Shown here in pieces: positions 37,922 through 58,068 of a stretch of DNA of 64,000 bases. Source of the stretch: Marivirga aurantiaca. GTDB lineage: Bacteria; Bacteroidota; Bacteroidia; Cytophagales; Cyclobacteriaceae. How positions within the stretch are numbered: the stretch's first letter is position 1; the number at the start of each line of letters is the position of its first letter. The translations under genes and the position numbers were made by a program. Location: contig NZ_JAEQBW010000004.1 in assembly GCF_016679925.1 (NCBI RefSeq), positions 248,001 to 312,000 of the forward strand, given 5' to 3'. The notes under the pieces were generated by a model. The model made no database searches and was not told the origin of the DNA. It was given only the letters and a program-made list of their open reading frames with translations.

Positions 37922-37943
37922 AATTTGTTTTATTAATAAACAC

Positions 37944-39884: not shown

Positions 39885-40252
39885 TGCCTTGTAAAGTTAT
39901 TGATTACTTTAAATTTGTTTGAAAAAAAGGATAAGAAATTAGAGCTATAGTGGAAACCGTTTTACTTCATTTCCATTAGGCCTAGTGACAGGGTTCTTGT
40001 ATTTTGACGCCATCTAATTTAGACTAGTTTACTTTTTTATCTTTCAGATCAAAATGGGTTAATGAGAAAAATGGGACAAAATATTCTTTAGAGATATGGC
40101 TTCTTACAAATATTGGGAGAATTATTCAGTTGATTGTTTTCAGGGTGTTATTCTTTACAATATTGCCTTTATGGATAACTCGGTAGTAAAGTTCCATAAT
40201 GTCTCCGTATAAATCTACAACTATCATACTATTCATAACATTCTTAGGATCT
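39885..40252. other. 368-bp gene-free stretch in the transposon cargo
   Basis: No convincing reading frame is seen. It holds the upstream copy of an approximately 50-bp direct repeat (40057-40106) and the likely promoter of the endonuclease gene. Confidence 0.5.
40057..40106 (+). repeat. Imperfect direct repeat, copy 1
   Basis: GGTTAATGAGAAAAATGGGA begins a stretch of about 50 bp that recurs, with several substitutions, at 41910-41957. The two copies flank the HNH gene and its upstream partner. The core TAATGAGA also occurs in the transposon's right-end repeat. Confidence 0.65.
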
Positions 40253-41020
40253 TTAACCATAAGATTTGATACCGTAAATTTTGAGGTTAGAATAAATTAC
40301 TCTAAGCTGTTTTTTTTCTTCATGGTCAGTAGATGTTAATCCTTTCAAAGCTATGAACGCTAATTCTTTTACAATTTCCAGATCAGTGTTAGGAATATTC
40401 CAAATATCTTGAAAATCAAACCATCTTACACCTTTTTCTTTTAATAGAATCTGATATGAGTGGTTGTTTGTGCTACCATATATTCTTATTTGGTTGTGTG
40501 AGTGTGTAGAATAAGTAAATTTCTTTTTCTTTTTAGTAAAACCATCATACCATAAAGCTTGTGTTCTGAATTTACTTATATTCTTGAATAAATCGAGAAC
40601 ATGTTTACTCATAAATTGATCTTGAACTGTAAGGTATTCAATACATGTACTACCAACAGTTTTATAACCCCATTCAGGATGATATGTTAAATGTTCATAT
40701 CTTATTTCAGTACCACATCCCTTTCTCTCACATATACCACTAAGTTCTCCTAAATCTGTAATATCAATTAATGTCCAACCAAAAGAAGGTTCAATCTTAT
40801 TGTGTTCTCTTGCGTGACATCCCTTACAAAGAGTAACACAGTCAAAAAGATTATATTCCCATATGTTCTTGTAGGGGACATATTTTAAATGGTGAACCTG
40901 CAAAGATGTTTGTTTTGAGCTTCTTTCACATTTAACGCAACAGTAGTTATCTCTAGATTTAACTCTCATAGAAAACTCATGCCATTCCTTGCAATGATAT
41001 TGTCTTTTAATTATTCTCAA
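40253..41020 (-). CDS. HNH endonuclease-like protein
   Basis: The 255-aa protein has an N-terminal HNH fold with two zinc-knuckle pairs: CVKC (about 26-29), LQVHHLKYV with the HH pair, and LCKGCHAREH. This is a full CxxC..HH..CxxC..H layout of a nuclease. Residues 85-255 have another Cys-rich segment (CERKGCGTEIRYEHL) and no known domain. The start is TTG, placed immediately after the TAA stop of the upstream gene, so the two are coupled. As a pair between direct repeats they look like a swapped-in module. Confidence 0.75.
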   Translation of the reverse strand: MRIIKRQYHCKEWHEFSMRVKSRDNYCCVKCERSSKQTSLQVHHLKYVPYKNIWEYNLFDCVTLCKGCHAREHNKIEPSFGWTLIDITDLGELSGICERKGCGTEIRYEHLTYHPEWGYKTVGSTCIEYLTVQDQFMSKHVLDLFKNISKFRTQALWYDGFTKKKKKFTYSTHSHNQIRIYGSTNNHSYQILLKEKGVRWFDFQDIWNIPNTDLEIVKELAFIALKGLTSTDHEEKKQLRVIYSNLKIYGIKSYG

Positions 41021-41731
41021 TTAATAGACATTAATGAGCTTTTTATTTTTCACATCAGATACTTTCCATAATTGATAGTTTAATTTATAAAGTACCTTAA
41101 ACGCCCGACAGGCATTACCCACTAATACTTCCCAAGGGCAATCAATCTTCCATTTGATTTCATACCAACCTAAATCTAAATCATATTTTCTTTCATCATT
41201 TGGCAAATTGATATTATCAATTTCATATATCAAATAGTTACGAAGTAACTTGAACAGATTACTCTTTTTCCCATTGAAATACTTTTCCTCGGTAGATGAT
41301 ATACCTGCATTTTGTTTGAATTCAAAATCTCCAAACTGTTTGAGTGAAAGTAGGAGTTCCCAATAGTCATCATCTGCGTATTTTAAATTCTCGGGATGAT
41401 ATAGGTAACAATTCAAATAAATTGTGGCATCCATTAAATCTATTCCAAAATCAAATGTGTCATTAGTTTTAATAGATTTCAGCAACAAGTGCTGTCCAAA
41501 AGGATTCATTCTACAATAATTGTCATCCCAACTATCCTTAAAATTACCGTATTTATAAAAGCAATCTGCTATATCTTTAAATATATCATTCATACCTGTT
41601 ATGATTTTCATAAATTCTTCCTCGTCATATTCATCGGGTTTCCAATTAGCATGTATATAGAGATCGAGCTTTTCCTGCCAATCAGAGTGCTTTCCTTTGG
41701 TCTGATTAATAATTTTTTCGAGTTTATTCAT
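41021..41731 (-). CDS. Unknown protein coupled to the HNH gene
   Basis: The 236-aa protein is acidic, rich in aromatic residues and without signal or membrane segments. I recognise no domain. Its stop codon touches the TTG start of the HNH gene, so they form one operon and probably work together, perhaps as a nuclease with its immunity or specificity partner; that is inference. Confidence 0.6.
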   Translation of the reverse strand: MNKLEKIINQTKGKHSDWQEKLDLYIHANWKPDEYDEEEFMKIITGMNDIFKDIADCFYKYGNFKDSWDDNYCRMNPFGQHLLLKSIKTNDTFDFGIDLMDATIYLNCYLYHPENLKYADDDYWELLLSLKQFGDFEFKQNAGISSTEEKYFNGKKSNLFKLLRNYLIYEIDNINLPNDERKYDLDLGWYEIKWKIDCPWEVLVGNACRAFKVLYKLNYQLWKVSDVKNKKLINVY

Positions 41732-41909
41732 AGTATATTTGAATTAGGAAATGGATAGTAATTTAGTAAAATTTTACTTAACTATAATTGTGATCTACGA
41801 CTAGTTGGAATATAGCCAAGAGAGGGACGCAAGGCACAGTATGTCTGTATAGATATGACAAATTTTACATTTATTTGATAGTTACCTTTATAAGATTTAT
41901 CCTATAAAA

Positions 41910-41957
41910 GGTTATTGAGAAAAATGAGCCAAAAATATCTTTAAGAAATATACCTTA
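41910..41957 (+). repeat. Imperfect direct repeat, copy 2
   Basis: GGTTATTGAGAAAAATGAGC opens the stretch. It matches copy 1 (40057-40106) at most positions over about 48 bp, in the same orientation and about 1.85 kb away. Confidence 0.65.
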
Positions 41958-42080
41958 CTCCCTTACACCTATTTTTCTCAGCCATTCAATAACATTTTCC
42001 CGCACTTCTACCTTCTTGTCTCCTTCCATCAGAAAATAGATTCCATCTCTTTCTATCCCCCCCTTTGGTTGAAAATCCTT
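41955..42080 (-). pseudogene. C-terminal remnant of an unidentified gene
   Basis: A 41-codon frame bounded by stop codons reads like a protein C-terminus (GGIERDGIYFLMEGDKKVEV, ENVIEWLRKIGVRE) but has no start codon. It is probably the tail of a gene lost by rearrangement. I cannot name the family. Confidence 0.4.
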
Positions 42081-42101
42081 CTAAAATGGTACTTTTAGTA
42101 C

Positions 42102-42551
42102 ATAATTTATACAAGGGTTTCGACTAAGGATCAATCTACAGCAAGGCAGCTTAATGATATGAAAGGTGTAGAGAGATTTGAGATGATCAAGGTCTTCTCT
42201 GAAAAAGTATCTAATTTGATAGAGTACTTAAAAACTACTGGAGTAGCACTTTATATTCATAATATTGGAGCAACCATTAATACCAATAATGAAACTGGTG
42301 AGATTTTCACAAAACTGATAGTCACCATAATGGCAGATTTGGCCAGGCTTGAAAACGAGCAAATGAGTTACAGAATCAAGTCTGGAATTAGATCTAGGAA
42401 AGCAAAAGGTTTTACTACTGGAAGAAAGATAGGCTCAAAAGAAACTTACGAAAATTTTCTAGCTAAACATGAAGACATAATTAAATTTAAGAGAGAAAAT
42501 TTAGTATTTTCACCTTTTATGCTGATCAAATTTCAACCTTATGGCAATTAA
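42102..42551 (+). pseudogene. Truncated serine recombinase (resolvase/invertase) relic
   Basis: The frame encodes the catalytic core of a small serine recombinase: YTRVSTKDQSTARQLNDM with the active-site Ser, and later MADLARLENEQMSYRIKSG, a typical E helix, then GRKIGSKETYENF. The expected start codon is replaced by a TAG just before YIIYTRVS; an ATG exists only inside at 42159. The C-terminal helix-turn-helix is missing: after FKRENL the sequence turns into unrelated residues and stops within the next gene. It is therefore a relic whose 3' end was replaced by the KAP gene. Confidence 0.75.
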
Positions 42552-45462
42552 CTCTTCCAATGTTTATCCATTTAAAGTTATCCTTGAACAAGCAGAATTA
42601 GAGGATAAATTTCAAAATCAAGCCCATGAAAGGATTTCGGAAACATTGTTCAATACTATAAGAAATAATGAAACAGGTTTTACGATTGGACTTGAAGGGA
42701 AATATGGATCTGGTAAAAGCACAATTATAAATCTATTAAAGAAAAAAGTAGAGAGACAGTCAAATCTCCTGCTTTTTTATTTTGATGCATGGGCACATGA
42801 AGGAGATCCTTTGCGTAGAATTTTTTTAGAAAGCATGATTTCTCAATGCCTACCTAAAGAAAGTGTGAAGAATGATAATCTTAAGGAAATAGCTAAACTT
42901 GTTAAAAGAATAAAAGGACAGTTTTTTGAAAAAAATATTCAGAGTAAAAGAAGCACAACAAAATTGGGTTTCTGGATTGCTTTATCAGGGTTATTTATCC
43001 CCATTGGACTTGCTATACTTTCTTCAATAGGTAAAGGCGCATATTCATTGGATTTTAAAGGAGAAATACATTGGCAAGCATTTGCAGGCTTTATTGCAAT
43101 TTGTCTACCTATTATTGTTCTATTTTTTAATTTCTTAATACTTCATATCTATTCCTGGCCAACAAAGAAAATAAAAAAGTATTCTGATATATATGCGTCT
43201 TACAATTGGGCTTTCTTACAAAGTAATAGTTTAGAGAGTATTGAAGAGACTACTTATCAAGATGATGAACGCACTTCTATTGAGTTTGAAGAGTTTTTTA
43301 ATGAAATACTTGATTATATATTTAAAAATGAAAAGAAAGAAAAAGTTATAATAGTTTTAGATAATATTGACAGGGTTCTACCAGATGATACAGTAAAAAT
43401 AATCTCACTGATTCAAAATTTTGGACTTGCTAATGAAAATTTAAAGGTTAGAACTGATTCTAATTATCATAAAATTTTTACTGTTGTGCCATATGATGCA
43501 AAAGGTTTAAAATCAAGATTGGTATTAGAAAATAGTATTGAAGATATATTAGAAAGATTCCTGGAGAAAAATGTTCAGCTCAGAATGTTAGTGCCAAACC
43601 CTGTAGCTAAAGACTGGTTGAGTGTTTCAGAAAACGCAATTAAAAAGGCTTTCACTGGTTGGCCTCAAAGTGATATAGAAGATATTAAAATGGTATTCCA
43701 CCAAATTTATTCACAACCAGATTTTAGTCCCTCTCCAAGAGAATTGAAAATCTTTATTAATCAGGTTGGTATTCTTCGAACGCATTTTACGAATCAAATA
43801 TCTACTAAAGTGTTGGCTTACTATGTGATGAAAAGGTTCCTCTTTTCAGATTTGCTTTACTCTTATTCGCGAGATAGATTGCCTAAACAAACATTTATCC
43901 AAATGCTAGTGAATGGGGATATACCAACTCTGACAGATAACCGGGTCTTAAATCATTCAACAGTAAATGAAGAACTAGTAATGATTTTATTTGACGTCCA
44001 AGATGGAAATGACGGTTATGAAATATTGTTACAATCACCATTAAGGGTAGCTTTAGAGTCTCAGAGTATTGTAGAAATAAAGAAGTATGCCAAAACTCAT
44101 GGTCAAAACTTTTGGAGAGTAGCTAATAATCTTATCCAGACATGTGATACCGAACAGGCCTTCACATTTTTCGGAGCATTTAACCTGGCATTTGGATTGA
44201 AATGTTTTCGTCATCTTCCATTGTTTCAGAATAGGATTGATGAAGTCGTACTTAACATTAAAAATGATTTTGTTAAGCAGCAACATCATCATTTTAGAAT
44301 ATTTAAAAATAATCTAATCACAACTATCGATATGGCAACATTAGATAAGGGTAAGATTTACAAATATTGGTTGCGTGTGATGAAGGTTGTACTGCTTGAA
44401 CCTATTGAAAATCAACCAACAGAAGATATTCTGCAGGAAAAAATTATTAATTTTAATGATTTGTATAATTCAATCAGTCAATCAAGAAAACCAGAGCAAA
44501 TAGTAAGTGATTCCAAATCAATCCCTTGGATTAAATTGGCAAAGATAAATTTTATAAAAGGTATAAATTTTAATGACATTTTAATACCAGAGAAAGAAAT
44601 GGTTGAAAATTATATATCTGAATACAGTAGCAAGGAAAAGTATGATGATGATTTTCCATACCTTATCCAGTATTTGCTTTCTGCAGATAAGCTTTCCTAC
44701 CAAGAATGTCTCACATATGCTCTAACTATTCTTAAATCATCTAAAGACAATAATAAAAATTTACCTCCAGATACTATTCTTTCTGTAAGCGAAGCTTATT
44801 TCGATTATTTGCACTTTGTAATTGTGAAGTATAAAGATGAATATTCGCTTGATGATTTGAAGATAATCTTTTCTCAGACCTCCATAAGTAAAAATATACC
44901 CATCAGACCTTACTCTACCCTACTTTATAAGATAGGCCTGATTCGAGGTTATTTGTTAGGAGAAAATTTAGGAAATCAGGAGATTTTCGATGGCAAGGGA
45001 ATGCTTACTTTAACAAGAAAAAGAAGTGGGCTTACGGCGGAAGAGAGTCCTAATATTTACGAGATTTTTTATGTAGAAGACCTGTCATTTGTAAACTATG
45101 TTGTTGATGATATTGTGAAGCACTCAATGTGGAAACAGTTTTGGACGTTATGGAGAAATAAGGAAGCTGTCAATATATATTTAGCTTTAAAGAAAACGAT
45201 AGAAAATTCAAGCTTAGATGTTCATGGAGCTAAATTAATAGATTTGTTTAGTGGTATAGACTTGTTAAAAAGTAATGGAGAAAATGAATCTACTATTATT
45301 TTATTTATTAGGTATTTTATCAATAATTCATCTATAGAAATATTGAGTAAAAAGAAATTTTTAAAGGATTATAGGCTAATGGTGTCAAAGAATAAAATCA
45401 GTACAGAATATTACAATGAAGCTTATAATATGATAGTTTCTGAATTTTTTAAAGATTCGTAG
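42541..45462 (+). CDS. KAP-family P-loop NTPase, membrane-anchored
   Basis: The 973-aa protein has a Walker A at about 51-61 (LEGKYGSGKST), two transmembrane helices inserted within the NTPase domain (about 141-163 and 179-203), which is the hallmark of KAP NTPases, and a Walker B of the form VIIVLDNIDRVL (about 269-280). The remaining 600 residues are helical and unassigned. KAP NTPases such as PifA of plasmid F have been tied to phage exclusion. Here it is cargo of the Tn7-like element, overlaps the recombinase relic by 11 bp, and stands alone, so a single-gene defence role is plausible but inferred. Confidence 0.85.
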   Translation: MAINSSNVYPFKVILEQAELEDKFQNQAHERISETLFNTIRNNETGFTIGLEGKYGSGKSTIINLLKKKVERQSNLLLFYFDAWAHEGDPLRRIFLESMISQCLPKESVKNDNLKEIAKLVKRIKGQFFEKNIQSKRSTTKLGFWIALSGLFIPIGLAILSSIGKGAYSLDFKGEIHWQAFAGFIAICLPIIVLFFNFLILHIYSWPTKKIKKYSDIYASYNWAFLQSNSLESIEETTYQDDERTSIEFEEFFNEILDYIFKNEKKEKVIIVLDNIDRVLPDDTVKIISLIQNFGLANENLKVRTDSNYHKIFTVVPYDAKGLKSRLVLENSIEDILERFLEKNVQLRMLVPNPVAKDWLSVSENAIKKAFTGWPQSDIEDIKMVFHQIYSQPDFSPSPRELKIFINQVGILRTHFTNQISTKVLAYYVMKRFLFSDLLYSYSRDRLPKQTFIQMLVNGDIPTLTDNRVLNHSTVNEELVMILFDVQDGNDGYEILLQSPLRVALESQSIVEIKKYAKTHGQNFWRVANNLIQTCDTEQAFTFFGAFNLAFGLKCFRHLPLFQNRIDEVVLNIKNDFVKQQHHHFRIFKNNLITTIDMATLDKGKIYKYWLRVMKVVLLEPIENQPTEDILQEKIINFNDLYNSISQSRKPEQIVSDSKSIPWIKLAKINFIKGINFNDILIPEKEMVENYISEYSSKEKYDDDFPYLIQYLLSADKLSYQECLTYALTILKSSKDNNKNLPPDTILSVSEAYFDYLHFVIVKYKDEYSLDDLKIIFSQTSISKNIPIRPYSTLLYKIGLIRGYLLGENLGNQEIFDGKGMLTLTRKRSGLTAEESPNIYEIFYVEDLSFVNYVVDDIVKHSMWKQFWTLWRNKEAVNIYLALKKTIENSSLDVHGAKLIDLFSGIDLLKSNGENESTIILFIRYFINNSSIEILSKKKFLKDYRLMVSKNKISTEYYNEAYNMIVSEFFKDS

Positions 45463-45540
45463 GGGTACTGGTGAATCAAAATGTGTCAAATGCCATGAGT
45501 AAATTATCAAAAGTTAAAGTTCTATATGATCAGTATTATA

Positions 45541-47370
45541 CTATCTAACCTCATCTGCGCCTTTATTTTTTGTCTCTATTTGGTATATGTTTAACAAGCC
45601 AAAAGGATAAGGCAGAACAGGGCTGCCACTTGACCTGATAAAATCTACATTCATTAATTGGAAATATTCATTTTTAACGAAATGACCATTTAGTGGTATA
45701 ATTCTACGTATTGCGAAAGAGTTACTCTGCTTAATATTCATACTATACTCAAACCCACAAAAGTATTCTAGATTATCATCATCAAACCATATTCCCTGGT
45801 GAAGTTTTAGGTTAGATTTTTTGCCAGGCATTTTATATTTGTTTTGAAGCATAGTGCTTTTTGTAATCTTCAGTAAAGGGTAGATTTCCTTCTTGTATTT
45901 TAAAATATCTTCAAATGATGTCTCACCGGCAAAAGTTGTTTCCAGAAATTGATTATATTCAGGATAATCATCCAAATAAAAATCTTGAATTGGCTTTAAA
46001 TCCTCTCTTTGATTAAAGTCATCTGTTTTTGAAGCGTAAAGAAATTTCTTTTTTAAAGTAGTGATCATAACAATATTCCCTGTTTCCCGGTCCACCATGA
46101 AAGCAATATGATTAGGAATAGCTTTCTGAAATCCAGAGTATTCAATAAAGGCGGAGATGAGAATGTCAGAGATTTTACTATTTGCTAATGATTCTACAAT
46201 TATTTTATCATCCTCAAAATATAATACATCATTGGCGCAAACATATATATATTTTCTAGCTATTTCTAAATCGGGTAAATGTTGAATACTCTTGTGTCCG
46301 GCAAGTATGCCTTTTAGAAGAAGTTGATTTTCAATGATTTCAAGCTTCATATTCAGTTCTTCTGAGTTTATTTCATAATTGAAGTAATCTGAACTGTTGG
46401 AATCATTACTGTTTACATTTAGTATGTGACTTACAGCATATCTATTTTTTAAATATTTGTACTCATCTTCTATTCCACTCTTAATAGCGGCCTCTTTAGT
46501 GTAATCCAAAATAATTATTTTATTAAGTGATTCACTATTATTGAGGAAAGCAGGTAGCTCTATATCTTTATTATGCCGATAGTCTATAAAATGATATTCT
46601 TCAGAACTAGTATCCAGTGTTAATTTATGTTGTTTTACTTTTGAGAAATTACCGGACACTTGTTTGAGATTTAAGCCAAGTGTTTCAAAAAAATCAATTG
46701 TCTCTTTCAAATAGTTCCATAATATAGAATTTCTTGACTTTTCATATTTGTTTCTTGATTGAGTATCCATGAAGTCTACCTGGCTTCTATACTTTAGTGA
46801 GGAAAACTTTTGGTAAACATCCACGGATTTCCCTATTAGCGCCTCAGGCTTAATTTGTTCAAAATACTGTAGGTTATCTCTTTGTATTGGTATGTAAGCA
46901 AGCTCTCCTCTATAGATATCCATAGCAGATACTTTTCTGAATGTTATGGCATGGTCTTCTAATAAAATAAAAGACCCTTTTTTATAATCATGGGTAACAT
47001 CTAATTCAAGCGCTGAGAGAAAATTTTTACTAGATGCTTTTACTAATAAGATAGGTTTGTAGCTACTCTTAAACTGGACATTATTATGAGATTGATAAGA
47101 AGCATAACTAAATAAAGCTTTAATACAATCTGGAAATTCCTCTTCTAGTAATGCTTTTTCGTGGAGATTTGATTCTCCAACGATGAATGCGGTATTTTTA
47201 AAACTGTTAAAATAATATGCTAAATTAAATTTACCTTTCAACCAATTATGAGCCTCAATGTATTTTCTTTGACCAGTAAAAGCAGGAAGCTGAACTTTAA
47301 AAATATTGACATTTAATTTAGACTTAGCTAAATCAAAATATAATGCTGTTTGATTTACTATTTCTTTCAT
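45541..47370 (-). CDS. Unknown protein coupled to a helicase-nuclease; possible PIWI-like protein
   Basis: The start is the ATG at 47370 (MKEIVNQT), which overlaps the TGA stop of the helicase gene (ATGA), giving a 609-aa protein made by coupled translation; the frame continues upstream to 47448. No signal or membrane segment is present. I cannot assign a family from motifs. Layout hints at a MID/RNase H-like C-terminal half: hydrophobic strands KIIILDYTKEA, YIYVCANDVLYFEDDK and HIAFMVDRETGNIVMITTLK, and a C-terminus of LPYPFGLLNIYQIE reminiscent of Argonaute/PIWI tails. The partner helicase with a nuclease domain recalls pPIWI-RE systems. This is a hypothesis; a Cas8-like or entirely new fold is equally possible. 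Confidence 0.75.
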   Translation of the reverse strand: MKEIVNQTALYFDLAKSKLNVNIFKVQLPAFTGQRKYIEAHNWLKGKFNLAYYFNSFKNTAFIVGESNLHEKALLEEEFPDCIKALFSYASYQSHNNVQFKSSYKPILLVKASSKNFLSALELDVTHDYKKGSFILLEDHAITFRKVSAMDIYRGELAYIPIQRDNLQYFEQIKPEALIGKSVDVYQKFSSLKYRSQVDFMDTQSRNKYEKSRNSILWNYLKETIDFFETLGLNLKQVSGNFSKVKQHKLTLDTSSEEYHFIDYRHNKDIELPAFLNNSESLNKIIILDYTKEAAIKSGIEDEYKYLKNRYAVSHILNVNSNDSNSSDYFNYEINSEELNMKLEIIENQLLLKGILAGHKSIQHLPDLEIARKYIYVCANDVLYFEDDKIIVESLANSKISDILISAFIEYSGFQKAIPNHIAFMVDRETGNIVMITTLKKKFLYASKTDDFNQREDLKPIQDFYLDDYPEYNQFLETTFAGETSFEDILKYKKEIYPLLKITKSTMLQNKYKMPGKKSNLKLHQGIWFDDDNLEYFCGFEYSMNIKQSNSFAIRRIIPLNGHFVKNEYFQLMNVDFIRSSGSPVLPYPFGLLNIYQIETKNKGADEVR

Positions 47371-50300
47371 TTGGATAATTCGTAAAGAAGTGACTCTAAA
47401 ACAGCATTCCTTTCCTCTCCTGAATGCATGTTGGTTATTCCTGGGCATGTTATAATATCAGCCGACTCAATGGGGACTTGATTACCATACAAATCAAAGC
47501 CCTTGCTGATTAAAGTGTCGTTACTCGAAGCATAATTAACAATAAAGTACCTTGCTTCAGGATAATAAAATCTAATGGTTTTAAGTTTACTAATACTATC
47601 TTCTATTAAATCAGTCCCTTTGAACATTAATTGTAAAATGGTTTTTTCTCCATACAGCTTTGCATCAATAAAATTAGACCCTGTTTGAATATCGGCTAGT
47701 TCAACCAATTCTCGTTGAGTAACATTGGAATATTTTACGCCATAACTAAACAAGATTGCTTTAATTGCTTCTTCTCCTAAAGCACCATAGACAATTGCCT
47801 GAAAAAATAATGGATGCCATACACTGATGTTTTGAAATTGACTATGTCTGTATTCTAATTCATAACCATAATGTTCAAAATGGCGAATAACGTTCTTATT
47901 TTTTGAGACCAAAGTATAAGGATAGCTATAGTCAATAACTTGTCCAGAATTCGCGTTTGGTGGATAAACGTTAAGGCCATCTAACCAAAGCTTTTGGTTA
48001 TGAAAGTGAGGTGTTTTGATAAAGCAATTTTTAAGTTTGGGTGGTTTTTGAATAAGAACATCTTGCCGTATACTTAGCCAATTGACCCAGCCATCCTCAT
48101 CTCCGCCTTTTCTGTAACTATTCAGCCCTAGCAACAGAGAATTAATTTCTTCCTTTAATAAGAAGGTTTCCTCTTCAATTGAATGAGCTTTAATACTATC
48201 CTTAATTAGTTCAACTGAAGTGTTTTTAATTATTAAGCTATCAAGTTCGTTAAAATGTGCTGATTTGAAATTATTTCGTTCTTTCAATTCAAAATTTGAG
48301 GTATAAATAGGGTCTGTTAGAAATTTAGTATAAATTGATTCTACGTCTTTCCATAAGATAACTTCGCAGTGATCTGTTTTTTCCCATTTTCTATCTTGTC
48401 TACCCAATACCTGAATTATTAGAGCAGCCATATATACTGGATATTCTTGTGACTCAAGATAAATCTTATTTAGCCTTGTAAGGCCAGAAGCTAGCCCTTC
48501 ATGATATTGCTCGAATGAAATGTCTGTATTAAAGAGTAATTTGGCCCATAGAAAAAAATTCTCTTTTTTTTCTTTTCTCTTTTCTTCTCTATGGCTTATA
48601 TTATGGAGAGCATAATAACTCCTTTCAAGTATGGCAATCGCGTCAAAATCGACTAACGAATTATTTTTAAAACAAATTGGATTTAAGCCATTGGAGGCGC
48701 TGGCGAATTGAGTTATAACAATTGTAGCATAATTTCCATTATTGAAGATATTTTTATAATCCGGATCGTCTTCTTTCATGAAACGATAAGAGTTCTTGTT
48801 TAAGAAAAATAAGTTAAGAACCTTACCTTGAATGCATATTTCGAAATGAATTTTATGCTTTGTAATTTTCAGCTCCTTCCAAATTTTTGAAAATACTAAT
48901 TCATTTTCATCATTAAAAAGCCCCTTTAGTTGACTAAATGTAGTTGCATAAATCAAATGAGTTTTAGATTTTGATTTTGTGGCCACAAAATCAAAGTAAG
49001 TGAAGAACCTTAAAAGCCTGTTATGCCTAATGTCAATTACTTTATCAAACTCATCTTCTTTTAGTAAATACCCGTTATTCTTTAAAAGTTTAAATAGGTT
49101 TATATATGAAGGCTGATGGTTATCATCAAGTGAGTAGTAGGAAATAGTAGTCTCTCTTAAGTCTTTTTTCCTTTCAATCTCTGATTTTATTACTTGTTTA
49201 TACTCTTCTGTCCAGTCTATAAAGTAATGTTGTTTTCTCAATTCAGAAATATCAAAATTATTAATATTTCTAGGAATCTGAAGAGTAGCACTTATACCCA
49301 TGACCAGGTTTTTCCTCGAAATCTGATCTATGATTTTTTCGGGTGTAGAGATTAATTGAGAATAGCTTAAGTTTACCCTTTTGTTTATTAATAAGTCTTC
49401 TTTTGAAGCCTCAATGAAGTTAAAGCTCCCTCTGTAAAATTTACTAATATTTGAATTGTTCTTTTGAGGTTGAATCCGGAAGAAGTATGGTGTTGTGGAA
49501 GAGAGGAAATTATAAATCTTGCCAGGTGAATCATCGTTATGCTTACTCCAGATATCATTAATAATGAAGTTAAAATAGCTTTCCCCCTTTTTGTCATGGA
49601 TTTTCTTTAAGCAAGTAATTAAACTACTAATAGTTGATGTAAAAACCCTGAAAAAGACATTTGAATATATACCACTATTATGATTGGAGATCAAAAAGTT
49701 ATCTTGATCAGGTATTTGTTCTAAATAGTAACCTCTCTTCAAAAAATCTTTAGTTGAATGAAAAGCCGAGTTAAGGGTTTCAGGTCTATCTAAATTACTA
49801 ATAAAATAATGACGTTCCGGGAACTCAATATTATATTTCTTTAGCTTGGAGATAAACTTATCGCAAATTGAAGCTAACTCGTCATTAACTGCAGGGTTTC
49901 TTTGATTCCAGTCAATAAAGTCTTCTAAAAAAATAAAAATATTTCTTAACTCCTTTTCATCACTTATTTGATTAAGGATCCATCTATATGTAAAATCAAA
50001 TTCATCAATTATTATTATAAAATCCTTGAAACTCATTAGGCTGTGGACCCTATCTCCATCATAGGAGGGTTTCATAAGTTTCTGAATTGAAGCAACTAAA
50101 ATTTTCTCGTCTCCTTCTAAAAACCTTTTAATTGGAAATATTAGTCTTTTAGTATCTTCATCTAAAATGTAATTATTTTTTATGTGGTTGTAAATCCAGG
50201 ATGCATCGTCAGAGATAATAGAATAATCTTGTTCTTTATCATATTGTAAGAACCGTTGTACTTTTAAAAGGCGAGTTTTCAGGTTACGATGGATTTCTGG

Positions 50301-50597
50301 ATTATGATTAAATATTAGGGAATCCTTAATGGACCTTTGTAAGGTGTTATTTTTAATTAAATCTATAATATGATCTGGATTACTTTTTAAGTGAATACCT
50401 CTTTCACCTATATCGTTATAAAATTGCTTTGCTAACCCATTAAAATAGGTAGTGTAAATAATTTTTTGGTCAGGGGAATTATCCAATAGGTCGATTACAG
50501 CTTTTGTCTTGCCCATACCTGTAGGTGCGGGCACGAAAAATAATCCATTTTTATTCTTGCTAATAACATCAGCATAAACATCATATAATGTATTCAT
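47367..50597 (-). CDS. Superfamily 2 helicase with C-terminal PD-(D/E)XK-type nuclease motif
   Basis: The 1076-aa protein has Walker A PAPTGMGKT (about 23-31), a DEAD-type Walker B IIDEFD (196-201), a SATL motif III (436-439), a motif V-like segment TQFASASNGLN (629-639) and motif VI QVLGRQDR (729-736), so it is an ATP-driven nucleic acid translocase of the Cas3/DinG-like SF2 kind. Residues about 930-1076 have a helix with Glu (GALGEEA) followed by VELADIQTGSNFIDAKLY; the Asp at 969 and DAK at 978-980 match a PD-(D/E)XK nuclease core. No Fe-S cysteine cluster is evident. The downstream gene overlaps it by 4 bp. It is cargo of the Tn7-like element. Confidence 0.85.
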   Translation of the reverse strand: MNTLYDVYADVISKNKNGLFFVPAPTGMGKTKAVIDLLDNSPDQKIIYTTYFNGLAKQFYNDIGERGIHLKSNPDHIIDLIKNNTLQRSIKDSLIFNHNPEIHRNLKTRLLKVQRFLQYDKEQDYSIISDDASWIYNHIKNNYILDEDTKRLIFPIKRFLEGDEKILVASIQKLMKPSYDGDRVHSLMSFKDFIIIIDEFDFTYRWILNQISDEKELRNIFIFLEDFIDWNQRNPAVNDELASICDKFISKLKKYNIEFPERHYFISNLDRPETLNSAFHSTKDFLKRGYYLEQIPDQDNFLISNHNSGIYSNVFFRVFTSTISSLITCLKKIHDKKGESYFNFIINDIWSKHNDDSPGKIYNFLSSTTPYFFRIQPQKNNSNISKFYRGSFNFIEASKEDLLINKRVNLSYSQLISTPEKIIDQISRKNLVMGISATLQIPRNINNFDISELRKQHYFIDWTEEYKQVIKSEIERKKDLRETTISYYSLDDNHQPSYINLFKLLKNNGYLLKEDEFDKVIDIRHNRLLRFFTYFDFVATKSKSKTHLIYATTFSQLKGLFNDENELVFSKIWKELKITKHKIHFEICIQGKVLNLFFLNKNSYRFMKEDDPDYKNIFNNGNYATIVITQFASASNGLNPICFKNNSLVDFDAIAILERSYYALHNISHREEKRKEKKENFFLWAKLLFNTDISFEQYHEGLASGLTRLNKIYLESQEYPVYMAALIIQVLGRQDRKWEKTDHCEVILWKDVESIYTKFLTDPIYTSNFELKERNNFKSAHFNELDSLIIKNTSVELIKDSIKAHSIEEETFLLKEEINSLLLGLNSYRKGGDEDGWVNWLSIRQDVLIQKPPKLKNCFIKTPHFHNQKLWLDGLNVYPPNANSGQVIDYSYPYTLVSKNKNVIRHFEHYGYELEYRHSQFQNISVWHPLFFQAIVYGALGEEAIKAILFSYGVKYSNVTQRELVELADIQTGSNFIDAKLYGEKTILQLMFKGTDLIEDSISKLKTIRFYYPEARYFIVNYASSNDTLISKGFDLYGNQVPIESADIITCPGITNMHSGEERNAVLESLLYELSK

Positions 50598-50796
50598 CTA
50601 GGTTTGGTTAAAAATAAAGGAGAAGATGAGGTTTATTAATCGACGATCAATATATGAAAAATTACTAAAGGGAGTGAGATTTTTAGTAATTAATTGCTAT
50701 AGATATATTGGATGAATTCTCATCTGCTCCTTTTTTCCTATTGATATGCGAATACAATAAAGGGTATGAGCTTAATGAGACTTTAATCAATTGTAT

Positions 50797-50997
50797 CTAC
50801 TTCTCAGATGTAGTATCTAGCTTATCAACAAATTTAATGCTGATTAAGTCAATTAATTCTAAATCACCTGATTCTAATTCAATAAGGGCTTTAGTTTCGG
50901 TTACAAAATTACTTTGCAAATAAACAAAGCGATGAAAGTAACCTGTGTTATTGCTTTTATCACGAAATTTTATTTTAACCCTTCTTAGACTTTTCAT
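50797..50997 (-). CDS. Small 66-aa protein upstream of the helicase gene
   Basis: An ATG at 50997 opens a 66-codon frame with strand-rich, patterned sequence (KIKFRDKSNNTGYFHRFVYL, KALIELESGDLELIDLISIKF). The pattern resembles a small beta-barrel and the opposite-strand frame looks like a shadow. It precedes the helicase gene by 199 bp on the same strand and could be the first gene of that unit. No known family can be named. Confidence 0.5.
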   Translation of the reverse strand: MKSLRRVKIKFRDKSNNTGYFHRFVYLQSNFVTETKALIELESGDLELIDLISIKFVDKLDTTSEK

Positions 50998-51090
50998 CTT
51001 ATTTGTCTGCCTAATTTACTGCAAATATAAAATTAAAAATCATAATCCGCACAAATAGTCTGTGTCCTGGCTTTTTCTTCACAACTACTT
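50998..51090. promoter_or_regulatory. Divergent promoter region between the 66-aa ORF and the XRE gene
   Basis: This short AT-rich gap separates divergent genes. CACAA (51080-51084) and TTGTG (51095-51099) form a spaced dyad across the start of the regulator gene and may be its own operator; this is weak evidence. Confidence 0.35.
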
Positions 51091-51330
51091 TTGATTGTGG
51101 AAATACAAAAAAGGATCGGTATTCAAATAGCTAAAATACGAAGGCAAAAAGGTCTTACCCAAGAAGACTTAGCCGATCTTGCCGACATTCATCCTGACTA
51201 TATTGGAAAAATAGAAAGAGGAGAAAGATCTCCTTCTTTAATTCGATTTCTGAAGATACTTGACGCCCTTAAGTTTAGTTATAGTGAGTTTTTTAAAGAT
51301 TTCAAAGGAGGAATTGATAATCAGCCTTAA
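51091..51330 (+). CDS. XRE-family transcriptional regulator
   Basis: The 79-aa protein is a single lambda-repressor-like helix-turn-helix (IAKIRRQKGLTQEDLADL, IHPDYIGKIERGERSPSLI), of the size of controller proteins of restriction-modification and mobile elements. The start is TTG at 51091; a GTG at 51097 is an alternative. It lies 78 bp upstream of the TnsE-like gene and divergent from the helicase unit, so it may control either. Confidence 0.88.
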   Translation: MIVEIQKRIGIQIAKIRRQKGLTQEDLADLADIHPDYIGKIERGERSPSLIRFLKILDALKFSYSEFFKDFKGGIDNQP

Positions 51331-51408
51331 TAATTACATAGCGGGCCTTCAGTGATAAATAAAAAACTGTTTCTTTGCTTTTACAAAAGTTATTGAGATT
51401 TTAGCTGG

Positions 51409-53304
51409 ATGGATACCAAAAATACATTTAGTCCCCCCGAACTTGATAAAAAGAGTACTTACTGGATATCTGGAATAGGGCAGGTACAATTTAAAGGGGA
51501 GTCTATTTTAATTAAAATCATTCTCTACAAATTATCCGAGCTGATAAAACCTTCTGAATTTAAATTTGATATGAATCAGATTCCAGACTGGAAGCCGATT
51601 GTTCTTTGGATTGATGTTGGAATGATATCAGAAATAACCATCGGATGCTTTATTCACAAAACAAAAATTCTTCAACCTAAAAAGAATTTAAAGAAACTTA
51701 GAGTAACTAATCTAGGGTTAGAAGATGAAAAAGGTATCAGTGATTTTAAAGTAAAAAGCATTTATGATTTTCGAATAGAAGATATCAGAAAAGATAAAAA
51801 CGGTAAGATTATAACGCTTCCTTCTTATGGATTTCCATTTTCAAAATTGAAAAACCTACCTTGTTTGCACTATATCAATCGTGAGAAATGTAAACTGTAT
51901 GTCTTTCCATGTATTGAAGTCATTCGGTTCTATTTTTTCACTTCATCTGATTTAGCTTACTTACTTTGTGGACATTTTCTAAAAGAACATATATTGGTGA
52001 ATCAACGATTGACTACGACTTATAAAAATGCTAAATACGATGGTTCGGATTTCATTCAATTGTCAAGGAATGTACCCGGGGAAGATGTGCTGACTGTCGG
52101 AAGAATATACTTATACGAAAAAGCACTTAGGGCCGCTAATATGATAAGAAATTCTATTTTTAGTAGCTACTCTGAGGGAGACGGAGGTTATCCAAAAAGC
52201 TTTTTTCCATTTGATGATAGTAGTAACTTGGAGATCAATACTATTGAAATGGGTGTTATAAAAGTTGAAGGGCCTTACAAAGGCTATTCAGTAGAGTTTG
52301 TTTCTAAAATTGTTAATTGTGATTATAAATTTATTCAAGAAGGATTTGAATGGTATAGAGATAATGATAATTCAAAAGCAGATCAAACTAATGCCGATAA
52401 AAGAAAAGGGCCAAAGCATGAAATTCCTCCTGAAGACACTAATGAGCTAAACATTAGACGATCCCATCAACCATATAATCCATCTAAGAGAAAGAAGAAA
52501 CTTAATTTAACGAGTTCAAGATTTAAGGGTGCGCCAGATTTAAATAGCCTAAAATATAATTATAAAACTGAACAAAAAACTGTAACAGATAATGGAATTT
52601 TCCAGCAAGAAGACTCTAATGAAGAAACCCTTAATCCAGGAATCTCAGGAGACTCAAAAGCTGGTTCTGCTACTATAGCAGATTCACCGCCAACTAAAAA
52701 AGAGTCAGATAAAGAAAGAAAGCTAAGAGAAGATAGGCAAAGCTATATACTGTTTTTTAATCAGTTGGCTGAGAGGTTTACTGAAGATTCCAACCTTGAG
52801 ATAAGTACATATAGTTTGTTTTTTGATGAAAAGAAGTGGGGAAATGAGCCTATAACAGAAAAAATGCGAAAGTTTTCCACAGGCCATAAAAAATTAAATC
52901 AAAAAAAAAGACAGCCAAAATATGTGTGGGAAGGAAAAAGAGAAGTGAAATTTATAGAAATCCAGATAAAAAGCTCCACAAGATTTTATTATTTATTTGA
53001 TGTCATACAAAGACAAGGAACAGCAGATCCTCCCACTTTACTCTTTCTAATCAATAATTCAGATTACAAATTAATATCAAAAAGGTTATTTCAAGAAATA
53101 TTTCTTTTTTTTACTAATAAGAGAAAAATAGCTGTGCCAAAGGATGAATTGCGCCATCTAGAATGGAGTACCTTCAAAAGGGAGTTTGTAATAAGGAGAG
53201 TAGATAAAGATGCAAAAGAAGATAGTATGGAGGAGATTAAAACCTTTAAACCTGCTGAGCAGACCTATATGAAAATTTATGAAGTAATTAAGAATAAAAT
53301 ATGA
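51409..53304 (+). CDS. tnsE: TnsE-like transposition protein
   Basis: The 631-aa protein resembles Tn7 TnsE by comparison from memory: an N-terminal domain with CKLYVFPCIEVIRFYFF and DLAYLLC matching the TnsE segment around its PQLELARSLF, a central basic and polar linker (about 325-440, low complexity), and a C-terminal domain (about 440-631) where FIEIQIKSSTRFYYLFDVIQ corresponds to the TnsE strand ending in LLEVDASDG. TnsE directs Tn7 to replicating DNA, chiefly conjugating plasmids, by binding 3' recessed ends and the sliding clamp. It is about 90 residues longer than Tn7 TnsE and is divergent in orientation from tnsABC. The identification is distant-homology inference. Confidence 0.65.
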   Translation: MDTKNTFSPPELDKKSTYWISGIGQVQFKGESILIKIILYKLSELIKPSEFKFDMNQIPDWKPIVLWIDVGMISEITIGCFIHKTKILQPKKNLKKLRVTNLGLEDEKGISDFKVKSIYDFRIEDIRKDKNGKIITLPSYGFPFSKLKNLPCLHYINREKCKLYVFPCIEVIRFYFFTSSDLAYLLCGHFLKEHILVNQRLTTTYKNAKYDGSDFIQLSRNVPGEDVLTVGRIYLYEKALRAANMIRNSIFSSYSEGDGGYPKSFFPFDDSSNLEINTIEMGVIKVEGPYKGYSVEFVSKIVNCDYKFIQEGFEWYRDNDNSKADQTNADKRKGPKHEIPPEDTNELNIRRSHQPYNPSKRKKKLNLTSSRFKGAPDLNSLKYNYKTEQKTVTDNGIFQQEDSNEETLNPGISGDSKAGSATIADSPPTKKESDKERKLREDRQSYILFFNQLAERFTEDSNLEISTYSLFFDEKKWGNEPITEKMRKFSTGHKKLNQKKRQPKYVWEGKREVKFIEIQIKSSTRFYYLFDVIQRQGTADPPTLLFLINNSDYKLISKRLFQEIFLFFTNKRKIAVPKDELRHLEWSTFKREFVIRRVDKDAKEDSMEEIKTFKPAEQTYMKIYEVIKNKI

Positions 53305-53555
53305 GTAACGATCAAGTAAAAATTAAATTAAAAGGCTTTAATGTATCCAAGAATGACTTTGAGGAAAAATACAATGTACAACTTTCCGATATTGAATGGG
53401 GAATAATTGCAAAAAAAATCAATTCATCATGGGAAGAACATATTCAGGAAGTGAGGCTTCTTGCTTTTAAGCACATTAGAGCAGCAATGAATGATATAGG
53501 GTATACTCCTTCTTTGGAAGGGAAAGATATTAGCTTTAAATCTACAGATTCTTAA
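53301..53555 (+). CDS. Small protein coupled to the TnsE-like gene
   Basis: This 84-aa protein overlaps the preceding stop codon (ATGA), so it is translated with the TnsE-like gene. It is mostly helical with charged residues (FEEKYNVQLSDIEWGIIAKK, EEHIQEVRLLAFKHIRAAM) and I know no family. Its end overlaps the convergent tniQ gene by 14 bp. A role as TnsE partner is inferred from coupling. Confidence 0.7.
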   Translation: MSNDQVKIKLKGFNVSKNDFEEKYNVQLSDIEWGIIAKKINSSWEEHIQEVRLLAFKHIRAAMNDIGYTPSLEGKDISFKSTDS

Positions 53556-54612
53556 TGTGCGGACTTAAGCTCTTATAAGAAGGGAGGTACTTTAAGGTTG
53601 GGTATGCATGCTTCCAGTAGGTGTATTTTAACGTAAGGTTTTCATTTATCATTTTTGCAAACCAGTATGGTAGTTCCTTATTTTCAAAATAAAGGAAGTG
53701 ACTCATAATTTTAGATTCTTTACATGTTTCTACAAGCTCTTGTTGATCCAGGTTTAAAAGAAATATTGCTTTTTCCATTAAATTGGTTCTAACTTCAAGT
53801 GTTGTATTCCGCATCTCGAGTGTTCTGTTATTCCCTTTTTCTAATGGGACAAAGCCATATTTATCACTAATGAATTTATCGAAATTATAAATTCTTTGGA
53901 TGCGAGAGCTAAGAATCCTTAATAGCAAAAAAAGAACCTCAAAATGTAAATGAGAGTAATTTAAATTATTGGTATAGCCTTTATCTAAGTAGGACTCTAA
54001 TTGTTTTTGATTATCCAGTTCGATAGCAGAGCAATTGATCCTCTCGGAATCTCTAAGATCAAAGTCACAATTGTAGCAATAACAAAGCTCTTCTGTCACT
54101 ATTTTTTCTTTATTTCTAAAGTCTAATCTTAGAAAGGAAATAGGTAAATTACAGGAAGGGCAATTATCTCTTAATTTTATACCGCATTTGGTACAGACAG
54201 TAGAAATTATTAAACGCCATCTTTTCCTATAGTAAGGCTCCTTGTCATCAACAAAACAAGAACTACAGTACATTAAATGATTATTGTTCGTAAGTCTATG
54301 ATAGTGACCCCTGGTTAATATCCAGTTTTTTAAGGTCGGATCAGTCGTAAGTTTAGGGAAATAATCTGTGAGAACTAGGCTCTTTAAGGTTTCCTTACTT
54401 AAGAAAGTAATTTCTGTTAAACTATAAAGGAGATCGTCTTTTATGTAAAGATCAATGTCCCTTGTATCTATCTCTGTTCCTTTAAATAAAAACTTACAGA
54501 ATGTGTGATACTTTGTTTGAAATCGTTTAGAATACCTAAGCAGCCAACTGGTTAACAGTTCATCATTGAGTGGTTGTAAATGGACAGGCAACTTAGTGTT
54601 ATAAATACTCAC
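53542..54612 (-). CDS. tniQ: TniQ/TnsD-type target-site selector
   Basis: The 356-aa protein begins with LPVHLQPLNDELLTSWLLRY, the TniQ N-terminal signature, and carries zinc-knuckle cysteines at about 116/119 (CSSC), 140/143 (CTKC), 151/154 (CPSC) and 177-182 (CYCYNC). The C-terminal 150 residues probably read the target DNA. TniQ/TnsD proteins bind the attachment site and recruit TnsC; by position, this one is the best candidate for recognising comM. Its start overlaps tnsC by 4 bp. It is shorter than Tn7 TnsD (508 aa). Confidence 0.9.
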   Translation of the reverse strand: MSIYNTKLPVHLQPLNDELLTSWLLRYSKRFQTKYHTFCKFLFKGTEIDTRDIDLYIKDDLLYSLTEITFLSKETLKSLVLTDYFPKLTTDPTLKNWILTRGHYHRLTNNNHLMYCSSCFVDDKEPYYRKRWRLIISTVCTKCGIKLRDNCPSCNLPISFLRLDFRNKEKIVTEELCYCYNCDFDLRDSERINCSAIELDNQKQLESYLDKGYTNNLNYSHLHFEVLFLLLRILSSRIQRIYNFDKFISDKYGFVPLEKGNNRTLEMRNTTLEVRTNLMEKAIFLLNLDQQELVETCKESKIMSHFLYFENKELPYWFAKMINENLTLKYTYWKHAYPTLKYLPSYKSLSPHIKNL

Positions 54613-55493
54613 AGCAATGGCATTTTCTTTTTTTCATCTGGGTGTTGGATATTGCTATTTTCTATCACTTGAAGTGTAATTTTTTCGATTCCAAGATCAA
54701 TTGCTTTAATTGCTGACTTCTGGATTACATTACATATCTCTCCTATATTTCCATTTGTCAATGAGATTATTTTAGTGGCAATCTCTCTTTGGAACAAATC
54801 AGATTTTTCCCTCAACGGCAGAATTTTTTCGTAGCTATTAAGAAATTTTATATACTCCTTATCAAGTCTCCACCTTTCAAGTGGCACAGTTTCAAACCTG
54901 CTGGACATTTGAGGATCAGATTGAAAAACATGAAAAGCATCTTTTGTACCCACCGCAATGATAGAAATACTAAGTATGTTGGATAGCGATTTAATTGCAT
55001 TAAGAAAGATTTGCTTTTTAGTGCTATTGCCAGTTAATAAATGATGTATTTCATCTATTATTAAGATCTTGATATCAAGCATCTGAAATGCGTTTACAAC
55101 CTGATCAAACAGAACTTCCGGCTTATGATTAGATCTGAAAGGAACTAAGAGCTTACGAAGAATTTGCTGGTAGAATCTTTTTTCGTCAGGCAAAGGTGGG
55201 GATTCTACCATTAAAACTTTTTGTCTTACTTCTTCAGTCTTTTCATCAAAGTAGAGCAAATGGTTCTTAGCAAACCTATCAATAATAACAGTTTTCCCAT
55301 TGTTGCTTGAACCCACTAATAGAATGTCTGGCATTCGTGTAGTACGTGGCGTTAGGACAAGATCTTCAAATTGGTCCAGAACTTCTTGTGCTCGAGTGTA
55401 TCCTATCCACTTATAACCTTTAATGAATTGTTTCCTTTCTTCATTACTTTTTTGAGTAATATTGATACTACTGTTTTCTACTTGATCCATCAT
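54609..55493 (-). CDS. tnsC: TnsC/TniB-type AAA+ transposition ATPase
   Basis: The 294-aa protein has Walker A GSSNNGKT (61-68) and Walker B ILIIDEIHHL (143-152, Asp147-Glu148). Sensor residues lie in IIAVGTKDA. It lacks the long extensions of Tn7 TnsC (555 aa) and is closer to TniB/TnsC of Tn5053- and type V-K CAST-like systems. It links target-bound TniQ to the transposase and gives target immunity. Its start lies 26 bp inside the tnsB gene. Confidence 0.93.
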   Translation of the reverse strand: MMDQVENSSINITQKSNEERKQFIKGYKWIGYTRAQEVLDQFEDLVLTPRTTRMPDILLVGSSNNGKTVIIDRFAKNHLLYFDEKTEEVRQKVLMVESPPLPDEKRFYQQILRKLLVPFRSNHKPEVLFDQVVNAFQMLDIKILIIDEIHHLLTGNSTKKQIFLNAIKSLSNILSISIIAVGTKDAFHVFQSDPQMSSRFETVPLERWRLDKEYIKFLNSYEKILPLREKSDLFQREIATKIISLTNGNIGEICNVIQKSAIKAIDLGIEKITLQVIENSNIQHPDEKKKMPLL

Positions 55494-57321: not shown

Positions 57322-57322
57322 A

Positions 57323-58000: not shown

Positions 58001-58011
58001 ACCTAAGTTGT

Positions 58012-58024
58012 TGAGACTGTCTCA
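58012..58024. promoter_or_regulatory. Palindrome TGAGACTGTCTCA overlapping the inner right-end repeat
   Basis: TGAGAC and GTCTCA are perfect inverted arms around a single T, 11 bp upstream of the tnsA start. The right arm merges with the inner terminal repeat (CTCATTACTTTGGT read on the plus strand). This could let TnsB or another protein autoregulate the tns operon; the role is inferred. Confidence 0.5.
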
Positions 58025-58063: not shown

Positions 58064-58068
58064 CCTCC
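58064..58068. repeat. Right copy of target-site duplication CCTCC
   Basis: CCTCC lies immediately outside the right TGCA terminus and equals 36875-36879. On the coding strand it is GGAGG within two glycine codons of comM. Confidence 0.9.

What the first reader, a model, noticed from the sequence alone, without database searches (positions are those of the whole stretch)
45541..50997. Candidate undescribed nucleic-acid-targeting system: helicase-nuclease plus a coupled unknown protein
The sequence shows an SF2 helicase (Walker A, DEFD, SATL, QVLGRQDR) joined to a C-terminal segment with D969 and DAK978-980 of PD-(D/E)XK type, and an ATGA-coupled 609-aa protein with no family I can name. A 66-aa ORF lies upstream. 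Such a pair carried as cargo of a Tn7-like element, next to a KAP NTPase and nucleases, fits a defence role. The closest architecture I know is the pPIWI-RE module (PIWI-like protein, DinG-type helicase, restriction-like nuclease); the partner's strand pattern and its LPYPF C-terminus are compatible, but weakly. It could also be a new class.
Basis: partly seen in the sequence, partly recalled or inferred. Interest (0 to 1): 0.85.

Follow-up and report, generated by a model that had tools for sequence, protein, structure and literature searches.

The report
DdmDE-like plasmid defence on Tn7-like transposon
The two coupled genes are a distant, shortened relative of DdmDE, a known bacterial defence in which an Argonaute-like protein finds plasmid DNA and calls in a helicase-nuclease to destroy it, here carried as passenger on a Tn7-like jumping element.

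Summary
In detail: a 1076-aa helicase-nuclease and an ATGA-coupled 609-aa protein lie at 45541-50597 (-). They are not an unknown class: the helicase is a DdmD homologue and the partner a DdmE homologue (inactive long Argonaute), i.e. the DdmDE anti-plasmid system. Profiles of the families hit V. cholerae and L. casei DdmD (2e-32, 5e-18) and L. casei DdmE (2.7e-9). AlphaFold models match DdmE (Foldseek 3e-21, Z 19) and DdmD (1e-41, Z 27) above every other listed fold. D969, D978 and K980 are nearly invariant in a 16-row alignment. Helicase and partner occur together in 35 of 39 relatives' loci. pPIWI-RE is not supported. The pair is cargo of a 21,184-bp Tn7-like element in comM, with inverted repeats, a 5-bp duplication and a natural empty site in a same-genus genome. 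That genome has a 48%-identical pair in a different, TnsABCDE element. The two pairs form a compact, very divergent clade. Plasmid destruction is inferred, not shown. Interest is moderate: a divergent member of a known kind, taken up by two distinct Tn7-family elements.

The parts
47367..50597 (-). ddmD-like gene: SF2 helicase with C-terminal PD-(D/E)XK nuclease, 1076 aa
   Evidence: family profile hit to DdmD 2e-32; model's best matches are DdmD chains
50505..50528 (-). Walker A, residues 24-31 (APTGMGKT)
   Evidence: T26, G27, G29, K30, T31 invariant in 16 rows
47658..47774 (-). nuclease core, residues E942 to K980 (E942, E966, D969, D978-A-K980)
   Evidence: nearly invariant in 16 rows; same layout as published ApsA D1420..D1433-V-K1435 (passage of PMC11096173)
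45541..47370 (-). ddmE-like gene: inactive long-Argonaute homologue, 609 aa, ATGA-coupled to ddmD
46426..46461 (-). putative MID guide-pocket motif Y304-x3-K308, then H315 where 15 of 18 rows have Q
   Evidence: by alignment column; Y-x3-K itself is in 3 of 18 rows
36880..58063 (.). whole Tn7-like element, 21,184 bp, inserted in comM
   Evidence: natural empty site in G678
36880..36894 (+). left terminal inverted repeat (TGCAAAAAACCAAAG)
58049..58063 (-). right terminal inverted repeat (TGCAATTAACCAAAG on the - strand)
36875..36879 (.). target-site duplication CCTCC, left copy
58064..58068 (.). target-site duplication CCTCC, right copy
57323..58000 (-). TnsA (225 aa) of the carrier element
   Evidence: Pfam Tn7_TnsA-like_N 4.4e-23
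55468..57321 (-). TnsB-like transposase (617 aa)
   Evidence: Pfam Mu-transpos_C 4.2e-5 (above cut-off), rve 2.6e-4 (below cut-off); 22% identical to the TnsB-like protein of G678
54609..55493 (-). TnsC (294 aa)
   Evidence: Pfam TniB 2e-64
53542..54612 (-). TniQ (356 aa)
   Evidence: Pfam TniQ 8.4e-20
50797..50997 (-). 66-aa ORF: neighbour, judged NOT part of the DdmDE pair
   Evidence: a similar frame recurs with the HTH gene away from DdmDE in G678
51091..51330 (+). divergent Cro/CI-type HTH regulator, neighbour; may act on the shared upstream region (inference)
   Evidence: Pfam HTH_3 1.6e-16

Best explanation
The pair is a compact, divergent DdmDE system. The 609-aa DdmE-like protein is an Argonaute without a conserved catalytic tetrad; it should bind a short DNA guide and find matching invading DNA, most likely small multicopy plasmids. 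It then recruits the DdmD-like protein, which loads on the displaced strand, translocates with its helicase and cuts with its PD-(D/E)XK domain. Shown here: homology and fold of both proteins, conserved helicase and nuclease motifs, gene coupling, recurrence of the pair, carriage on a Tn7-like element. Inferred from published DdmDE work: guide loading, recruitment, translocation, plasmid loss. Inferred too: the transposon gains by helping its host cell exclude competing plasmids.
For: Profile of 7 helicases vs solved structures: V. cholerae DdmD 2.1e-32, L. casei DdmD 4.8e-18; best other hit 0.068. Profile of 18 partners: L. casei DdmE 2.7e-9, V. cholerae DdmE 0.0017; all four hits at E up to 1 are DdmE. 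Partner model (pLDDT 80.8, pTM 0.78): Foldseek ranks 1-6 are DdmE, best 3.4e-21, then long Argonautes from 1.5e-7; Z 19.1 over 549 residues (rmsd 6.2) vs 11.3 for the next Argonaute. Helicase model (pLDDT 80.4, pTM 0.69): ranks 1-20 are DdmD chains, some from DdmDE complexes, best 1.1e-41, then DinG at 1.7e-10; Z 26.7 over 931 residues vs 13.5 for UvrB. Motif conservation. Helicase and partner together in 35 of 39 loci. Helicase and partner trees agree on most main groups (the partner tree is the quick one).
Against: PADLOC's DdmD and DdmE models do not report the window proteins at E 0.01 (the helicase gets Cas3 7e-4 and DinG 0.003 there); a whole-genome search with the DdmD model gives the window only 6.3e-4. 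phmmer of the helicase alone against solved structures finds nothing at E up to 10 and of the partner alone DdmE only at 0.11. The helicase model superposes on DdmD with rmsd 14 over 931 residues, so its domain arrangement is not well fixed. H315 replaces the usual Q of the putative MID motif. The profiles were built from relatives, so the sequence link for the window pair is transitive. One relative (L073, genome G802) has a DdmD-like gene with no partner in 19.5 kb, so pairing is not universal. No functional test.
Confidence: 0.87

Rival explanations
1. It is an ApsAB-type system (E. coli antiplasmid pair) rather than DdmDE-type; the mechanism would be similar, with a conserved MID guide pocket in the partner.
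For: [quoted passage not shown] The helicase/nuclease motif order is the same. The partner keeps Y304-x3-K308; relatives L027, L028 and L032 have Q followed by G as in the ApsB motif, and L028 and L032 also have Y-x3-K.
Against: The ApsB motif needs Q; the window has H315. Best sequence-profile and fold matches are DdmE. No ApsA or ApsB sequence was at hand, so a direct comparison was not made.
Confidence: 0.1
2. Same machinery, other target: mainly phage DNA or rival mobile elements, or an accessory of the transposon itself (for example excluding a second element or linking to its plasmid targeting).
For: Pairs of this compact type are cargo of two distinct Tn7-family elements, and a pair of another type lies beside tnsA, B, C and D-like genes in Colwellia (L054). 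Other likely defence genes share the window element (KAP NTPase with QatA- and PifA-type matches).
Against: Published DdmDE and ApsAB act on plasmids (PMC12409362, PMC11096173, passages). Most relatives show no tns genes nearby: with my queries and at most 10 kb of flank, only L054 of 39 loci had a tns set; L052 had one TnsD-like hit.
Confidence: 0.12
3. A decayed or silent copy.
For: Some relatives are broken (L055/L018 helicase in three pieces, L029/L014 truncated); the usual MID Q is H in the window.
Against: Both window genes are full length with all helicase and nuclease motifs; a 48%-identical full-length pair exists in G678 with the same H.
Confidence: 0.05
4. A pPIWI-RE module.
For: Argonaute-like partner beside a helicase with some DinG/XPD likeness.
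Against: No pPIWI-RE family hit (model present); the nuclease is fused to the helicase; best matches are DdmD and DdmE.
Confidence: 0.01

Closest known systems
DdmDE of Vibrio cholerae and Lactobacillus casei (PDB chains: DdmD about 1190 aa, DdmE 687-715 aa)
   Same: Helicase plus C-terminal PD-(D/E)XK nuclease; inactive long-Argonaute partner; best sequence-profile and fold matches.
   Different: 12-15% identity to them in the structural alignments; DdmD about 115 aa and DdmE about 80-105 aa shorter; on a Tn7-like element, where V. cholerae has it on island VPI-2 (PMC12409362 passage).
ApsAB of Escherichia coli (PMC11096173, passages)
   Same: Same layout: Walker A, DE, SAT, QxxGRxxR, D..DxK; Argonaute-like partner; published as one broad family with DdmD.
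   Different: ApsA is longer (active-site K at 1435) and ApsB carries Y-x3-K..Q..K; the window partner has H for Q. Sequences not compared directly.
Pair in genome G678, same genus (L068 6733-11792)
   Same: 48% identity in both proteins, same compact sizes 1083 + 603 aa, also on a Tn7-family element.
   Different: Carrier is a TnsABCDE element at another site; its TnsB-like protein is 22% identical to the window's.

Membership tests
DdmDE | DdmD: SF2 helicase with C-terminal PD-(D/E)XK nuclease in one chain | tested here: met
   Motifs and conservation; model aligns with DdmD end to end, 1-1076 vs 19-1189, though at rmsd 14
DdmDE | DdmE: long Argonaute fold | tested here: met
   Foldseek ranks 1-6 DdmE, then long Argonautes; Z 19.1
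DdmDE | DdmE catalytically inactive (no conserved acidic tetrad in PIWI) | tested here: met
   After residue 330 only five columns are acidic in at least 70% of 18 rows, and in three of them the window has M, T or K. Sequence columns only; the active site was not superposed
DdmDE | ddmD and ddmE adjacent, same strand, in that order | tested here: met
   ATGA overlap in the window; 35 of 39 loci have both in that order, 33 of 39 with a partner ORF of 675 aa or more; the 4 without (L029, L039, L063, L064) are truncated or run into a contig end; L073, outside that set, is a true exception
DdmDE | Recognised by PADLOC DdmD/DdmE models | tested here: inconclusive
   Window proteins: no DdmD or DdmE hit at 0.01; DdmD model 6.3e-4 in the window's own genome; rows of the alignments: DdmD 6 of 16, DdmE 2 of 18
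DdmDE | DNA-guided elimination of plasmids; DdmD dimer released by DdmE | not testable with these tools
   Needs experiment
ApsAB | ApsB MID motif Y[X]3K[X]nQG[X]nK | tested here: not met
   Y304-x3-K308 present, H315-I316 in place of Q-G (motif from PMC11096173 passage)
ApsAB | Sequence closer to ApsA/ApsB than to DdmD/DdmE | not tested
   No ApsAB sequence was obtained
pPIWI-RE | Match to pPIWI-RE protein families | tested here: not met
   No such family among Pfam hits at E up to 1 for either protein; PF13032 is in the library (whose own genome search rang nowhere, controls included, and shows nothing by itself)
Tn7-like transposon (carrier) | TnsA, TnsB, TnsC, TniQ; inverted ends; 5-bp duplication; filled site | tested here: met
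   uninterrupted comM in G678 joins the two flanks

The most novel reading that the evidence does not exclude
Tn7-family elements in these Bacteroidota recruit a compact, distinct class of DdmDE with an altered guide pocket (H for Q) as a weapon of transposon against plasmid, and its targeting is tuned to the carrier. In G678 the same element encodes TnsE, published as the plasmid-target selector, so the element would both ride on conjugative plasmids and destroy others, perhaps sparing its vehicle by guide choice or timing.
Probability: 0.1. Interest if true: 0.7.

Novelty: new member of a known kind. Interest (0 to 1): 0.4.

Why it matters
It extends DdmDE-type plasmid defence to a compact, deeply divergent pair that PADLOC's models miss at E 0.01, and shows such pairs as cargo of two distinct Tn7-family elements in one genus. 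That makes it directly testable whether transposons use Argonaute-guided DNA destruction against plasmids, and offers a small DdmDE for structure work.

Tried and rejected
pPIWI-RE: rejected. Cas3, type IV DinG, mad8, CyRepA1, DEAD and ResIII hits to the helicase: weak, read as the shared helicase core. Pattern scans with the window helicase alone: no relative in genome contigs or viral contigs. Partner alone: 1 of 395 phylum genomes, the window's own; none in plasmids or phages at E up to 1. Helicase in plasmids at E up to 0.1: 144 records, all under 60% identity, 140 of them Salmonella, most covering only 13% of the query among the 20 listed; I opened three. Profile A2 in 395 phylum genomes: 8 of 395, of which 7 are weak partial matches (1.7e-5 to 6.3e-4) that I did not follow. 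L019 (G543), the 6.5e-4 hit, has neither gene by profile and was dropped. The 66-aa ORF as a third component: rejected as unlikely. Canonical V. cholerae, L. casei or ApsAB sequences for the tree were not obtained; the three Vibrio genomes searched each gave only the 1293-aa type.

Papers: PMC12409362, PMC11096173, PMC10293859 and PMC8649781 were seen as passages found by term search only; two DdmDE papers were not held; the rest were seen as search listings. 'DdmDE + plasmid + Argonaute' (9 papers), 'DdmDE' (24 listed of 25), two or more of 'DdmD/DdmE/homologs/Tn7' (20 of 709 listed), 'Tn7-like + Argonaute + helicase' (5) and 'ApsAB/DdmDE/ApsB' (30 of 24,074 listed) showed no title or start of abstract about DdmDE on Tn7-like elements; most papers were not opened, so this does not prove absence. 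In the Tn7 cargo survey PMC8649781 the words Argonaute and Ddm do not occur in the held main text.

The trees have 29 rows. Left out: of the 39 loci, the 15 with broken or missing genes or not chosen (L029, L039, L045-L047, L049-L051, L053, L055, L057-L059, L063, L064); also L013, L017 and the G802 helicase. The helicase tree is the careful one, the partner tree the quick one. They differ on the two Thiotrichaceae rows (L061, L065): with the gammaproteobacterial group in the helicase tree, with the other group in the partner tree. The partner profile was built from partners of 24 of the 39 loci that it then scored, so those recover by construction.
Full report
Observation. Libraries give little: for the helicase only weak DEAD/ResIII (2.2e-4, 5.5e-4), Cas3/DinG-like and CyRepA1 hits; for the 609-aa partner nothing in Pfam, PADLOC or NCBIfam at E up to 1. 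The only clue from single sequences was a 64-residue match of the partner C-terminus to DdmE chain 9iw3 at E 0.11.

Relatives. A whole-genome search with the helicase found matches in 7 of 291 genomes of the same order, own genome included and one of the seven a weak hit later dropped, and in 3 of 196 of the same family, own included. A profile search of their six-frame translations finds helicase and partner together in 35 of 39; the four without (L029, L039, L063, L064) are truncated or run into a contig end. The partner profile was built from partners of 24 of these 39 loci, so it is not independent, but BLAST links the partners on its own: the window partner to L027 at 3e-33 over 699 columns. 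One relative outside the set, L073 from genome G802, has a helicase and no partner, so pairing is usual but not universal. The system is rare in the phylum by these searches.

Identity. The 7-helicase profile hits V. cholerae DdmD at 2.1e-32 and L. casei DdmD at 4.8e-18, the next hit being 0.068. The 18-partner profile hits only DdmE: 2.7e-9 for L. casei, 0.0017 for V. cholerae. The AlphaFold models agree. Partner (pLDDT 80.8, pTM 0.78): Foldseek ranks 1-6 are DdmE, then Argonautes; VIA-align Z 19.1, 549 residues, 6.2 A, against 11.3 for the next Argonaute. Helicase (pLDDT 80.4, pTM 0.69): ranks 1-20 are DdmD chains, best 1.1e-41; Z 26.7 over 931 residues against 13.5 for UvrB. The 14 A rmsd there means that the arrangement of domains is not fixed.

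Active sites. In 16 helicase rows the Walker A, DE, SAT and QxxGRxxR residues are invariant and E942, E966, D969, D978 and K980 nearly so, matching the layout published for ApsA (passage). In 18 partner rows no acidic tetrad is conserved after residue 330; the strongly conserved acids are D263, D289 and D302, before or at the edge of the MID motif. This fits a catalytically inactive Argonaute. Y304-x3-K308 is present in the window (and in 2 other rows), and H315 stands where 15 of 18 rows have Q; G678 has the same Y-x3-K and H by my reading of the alignment. Relatives L027, L028 and L032 have Q-G there, and L028 and L032 the Y-x3-K..Q-G start of the ApsB motif (motif from PMC11096173), so the partner family may bridge DdmE and ApsB; that is my inference.

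Mechanism. From published DdmDE work (PMC12409362, passages): DdmE binds DNA guides and recognises plasmid DNA, recruits the autoinhibited DdmD dimer, DdmD loads on the non-target strand, translocates 5' to 3' and cuts with its nuclease domain. The parts needed for this are present here by homology; none of the steps was shown here.

Carrier. TnsA, a TnsB-like transposase, TnsC and TniQ are at 53542-58000. The element runs 36880-58063 (21,184 bp) with 15-bp end repeats TGCAA(AA/TT)AACCAAAG and a CCTCC duplication; the host comM gene reads as one open frame of 513 residues when the flanks are joined. In same-genus genome G678 the comM gene is whole and the two window flanks align next to each other (36192-36879 and from 58062), a natural empty site.

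Second carrier. G678 has a pair 48% identical to the window's in both proteins, 1083 + 603 aa, between end repeats near 306.9 kb and 335.1 kb, with TnsA, TniB-type TnsC, TnsD (3.5e-62) and TnsE (TnsE_C 8.1e-9) (the 712-aa TnsB-like protein had no Pfam hit at 0.01 and is named from its 22% identity to the window TnsB and its place), beside a gene that I read as glmS from its N-terminus (recalled, no call). So related pairs sit on two distinct elements. L054 (Colwellia) has tnsA, B, C and D-like genes just upstream of a pair of the gammaproteobacterial type; of the 39 loci it is the only one where my queries found a tns set, within at most 10 kb of flank. TnsE is called the plasmid-target selector in PMC10293859 (passage), which makes the joint carriage of TnsE and a presumed plasmid-destroying pair in G678 noteworthy.

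Placement. In the helicase tree the window and G678 form a 100/100 clade on a long stem (2.54 changes per column); the partner tree (quick method) also gives that clade, stem 1.62, and most of the same groups, with the two Thiotrichaceae rows placed differently. The two pairs are compact: 1076/1083 and 609/603 aa. The window's order holds genomes whose contigs coincide in length with named Cytophagales records (G488 and L029, 35,968 bases; G479 and L038, 236,868 bases), so the host is probably a member of Cytophagales (Bacteroidota); it is unnamed.

Verdict. A divergent member of the known DdmDE/ApsAB kind, not a new class; the novelty lies in its compactness, its distance from detection models and its carriage by two distinct Tn7-family elements.

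Noticed in passing
window 51409-53304 (+), 631 aa, with 53301-53555 (+), 84 aa: 631-aa protein without any family hit next to tniQ; could be a target selector of the element (TnsE-like?), as I noticed no TnsF-type recombinase although the element sits in comM. No BLAST similarity to the TnsE of G678.
   Followed up: partly
window 42541-45462 (+): KAP P-loop NTPase with partial QatA and PifA matches, probably a separate defence gene of the same element.
   Followed up: no
window 42159-42551 (+): Resolvase fragment lacking its start (Pfam 5.6e-7, profile positions 81-143), perhaps a relic of another element inside the cargo.
   Followed up: no
window 38439-39884 (-): Looks by eye like a secreted endonuclease-I-type protein with a C-terminal sorting domain inside the transposon cargo; not searched.
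   Followed up: no
L073 6840-11239 (genome G802): DdmD-like helicase-nuclease whose start overlaps the end of a metallo-beta-lactamase-fold gene, with no DdmE-like gene in 19.5 kb; possibly a different partner for the same effector.
   Followed up: partly
L027, L028, L032 partners: Q-G in the putative MID pocket as in ApsB, in proteins otherwise of the DdmE-like group; they may bridge ApsB and DdmE.
   Followed up: partly
L011, L044, L052: Partners 94-97% identical across Proteus, Marinomonas and Parashewanella; in L011 the pair lies among what look by eye like methylase and conjugation genes. Points to recent horizontal spread.
   Followed up: no
L068/L072 (G678 Tn7 element): The same stretch also carries a type IIG restriction enzyme, a DUF4297-HerA pair and a GmrSD-type gene: a dense defence cargo.
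   Followed up: no
L055 9926-13063 (same contig as L018): Helicase broken into three frames while the partner gene is intact: a decaying copy.
   Followed up: no
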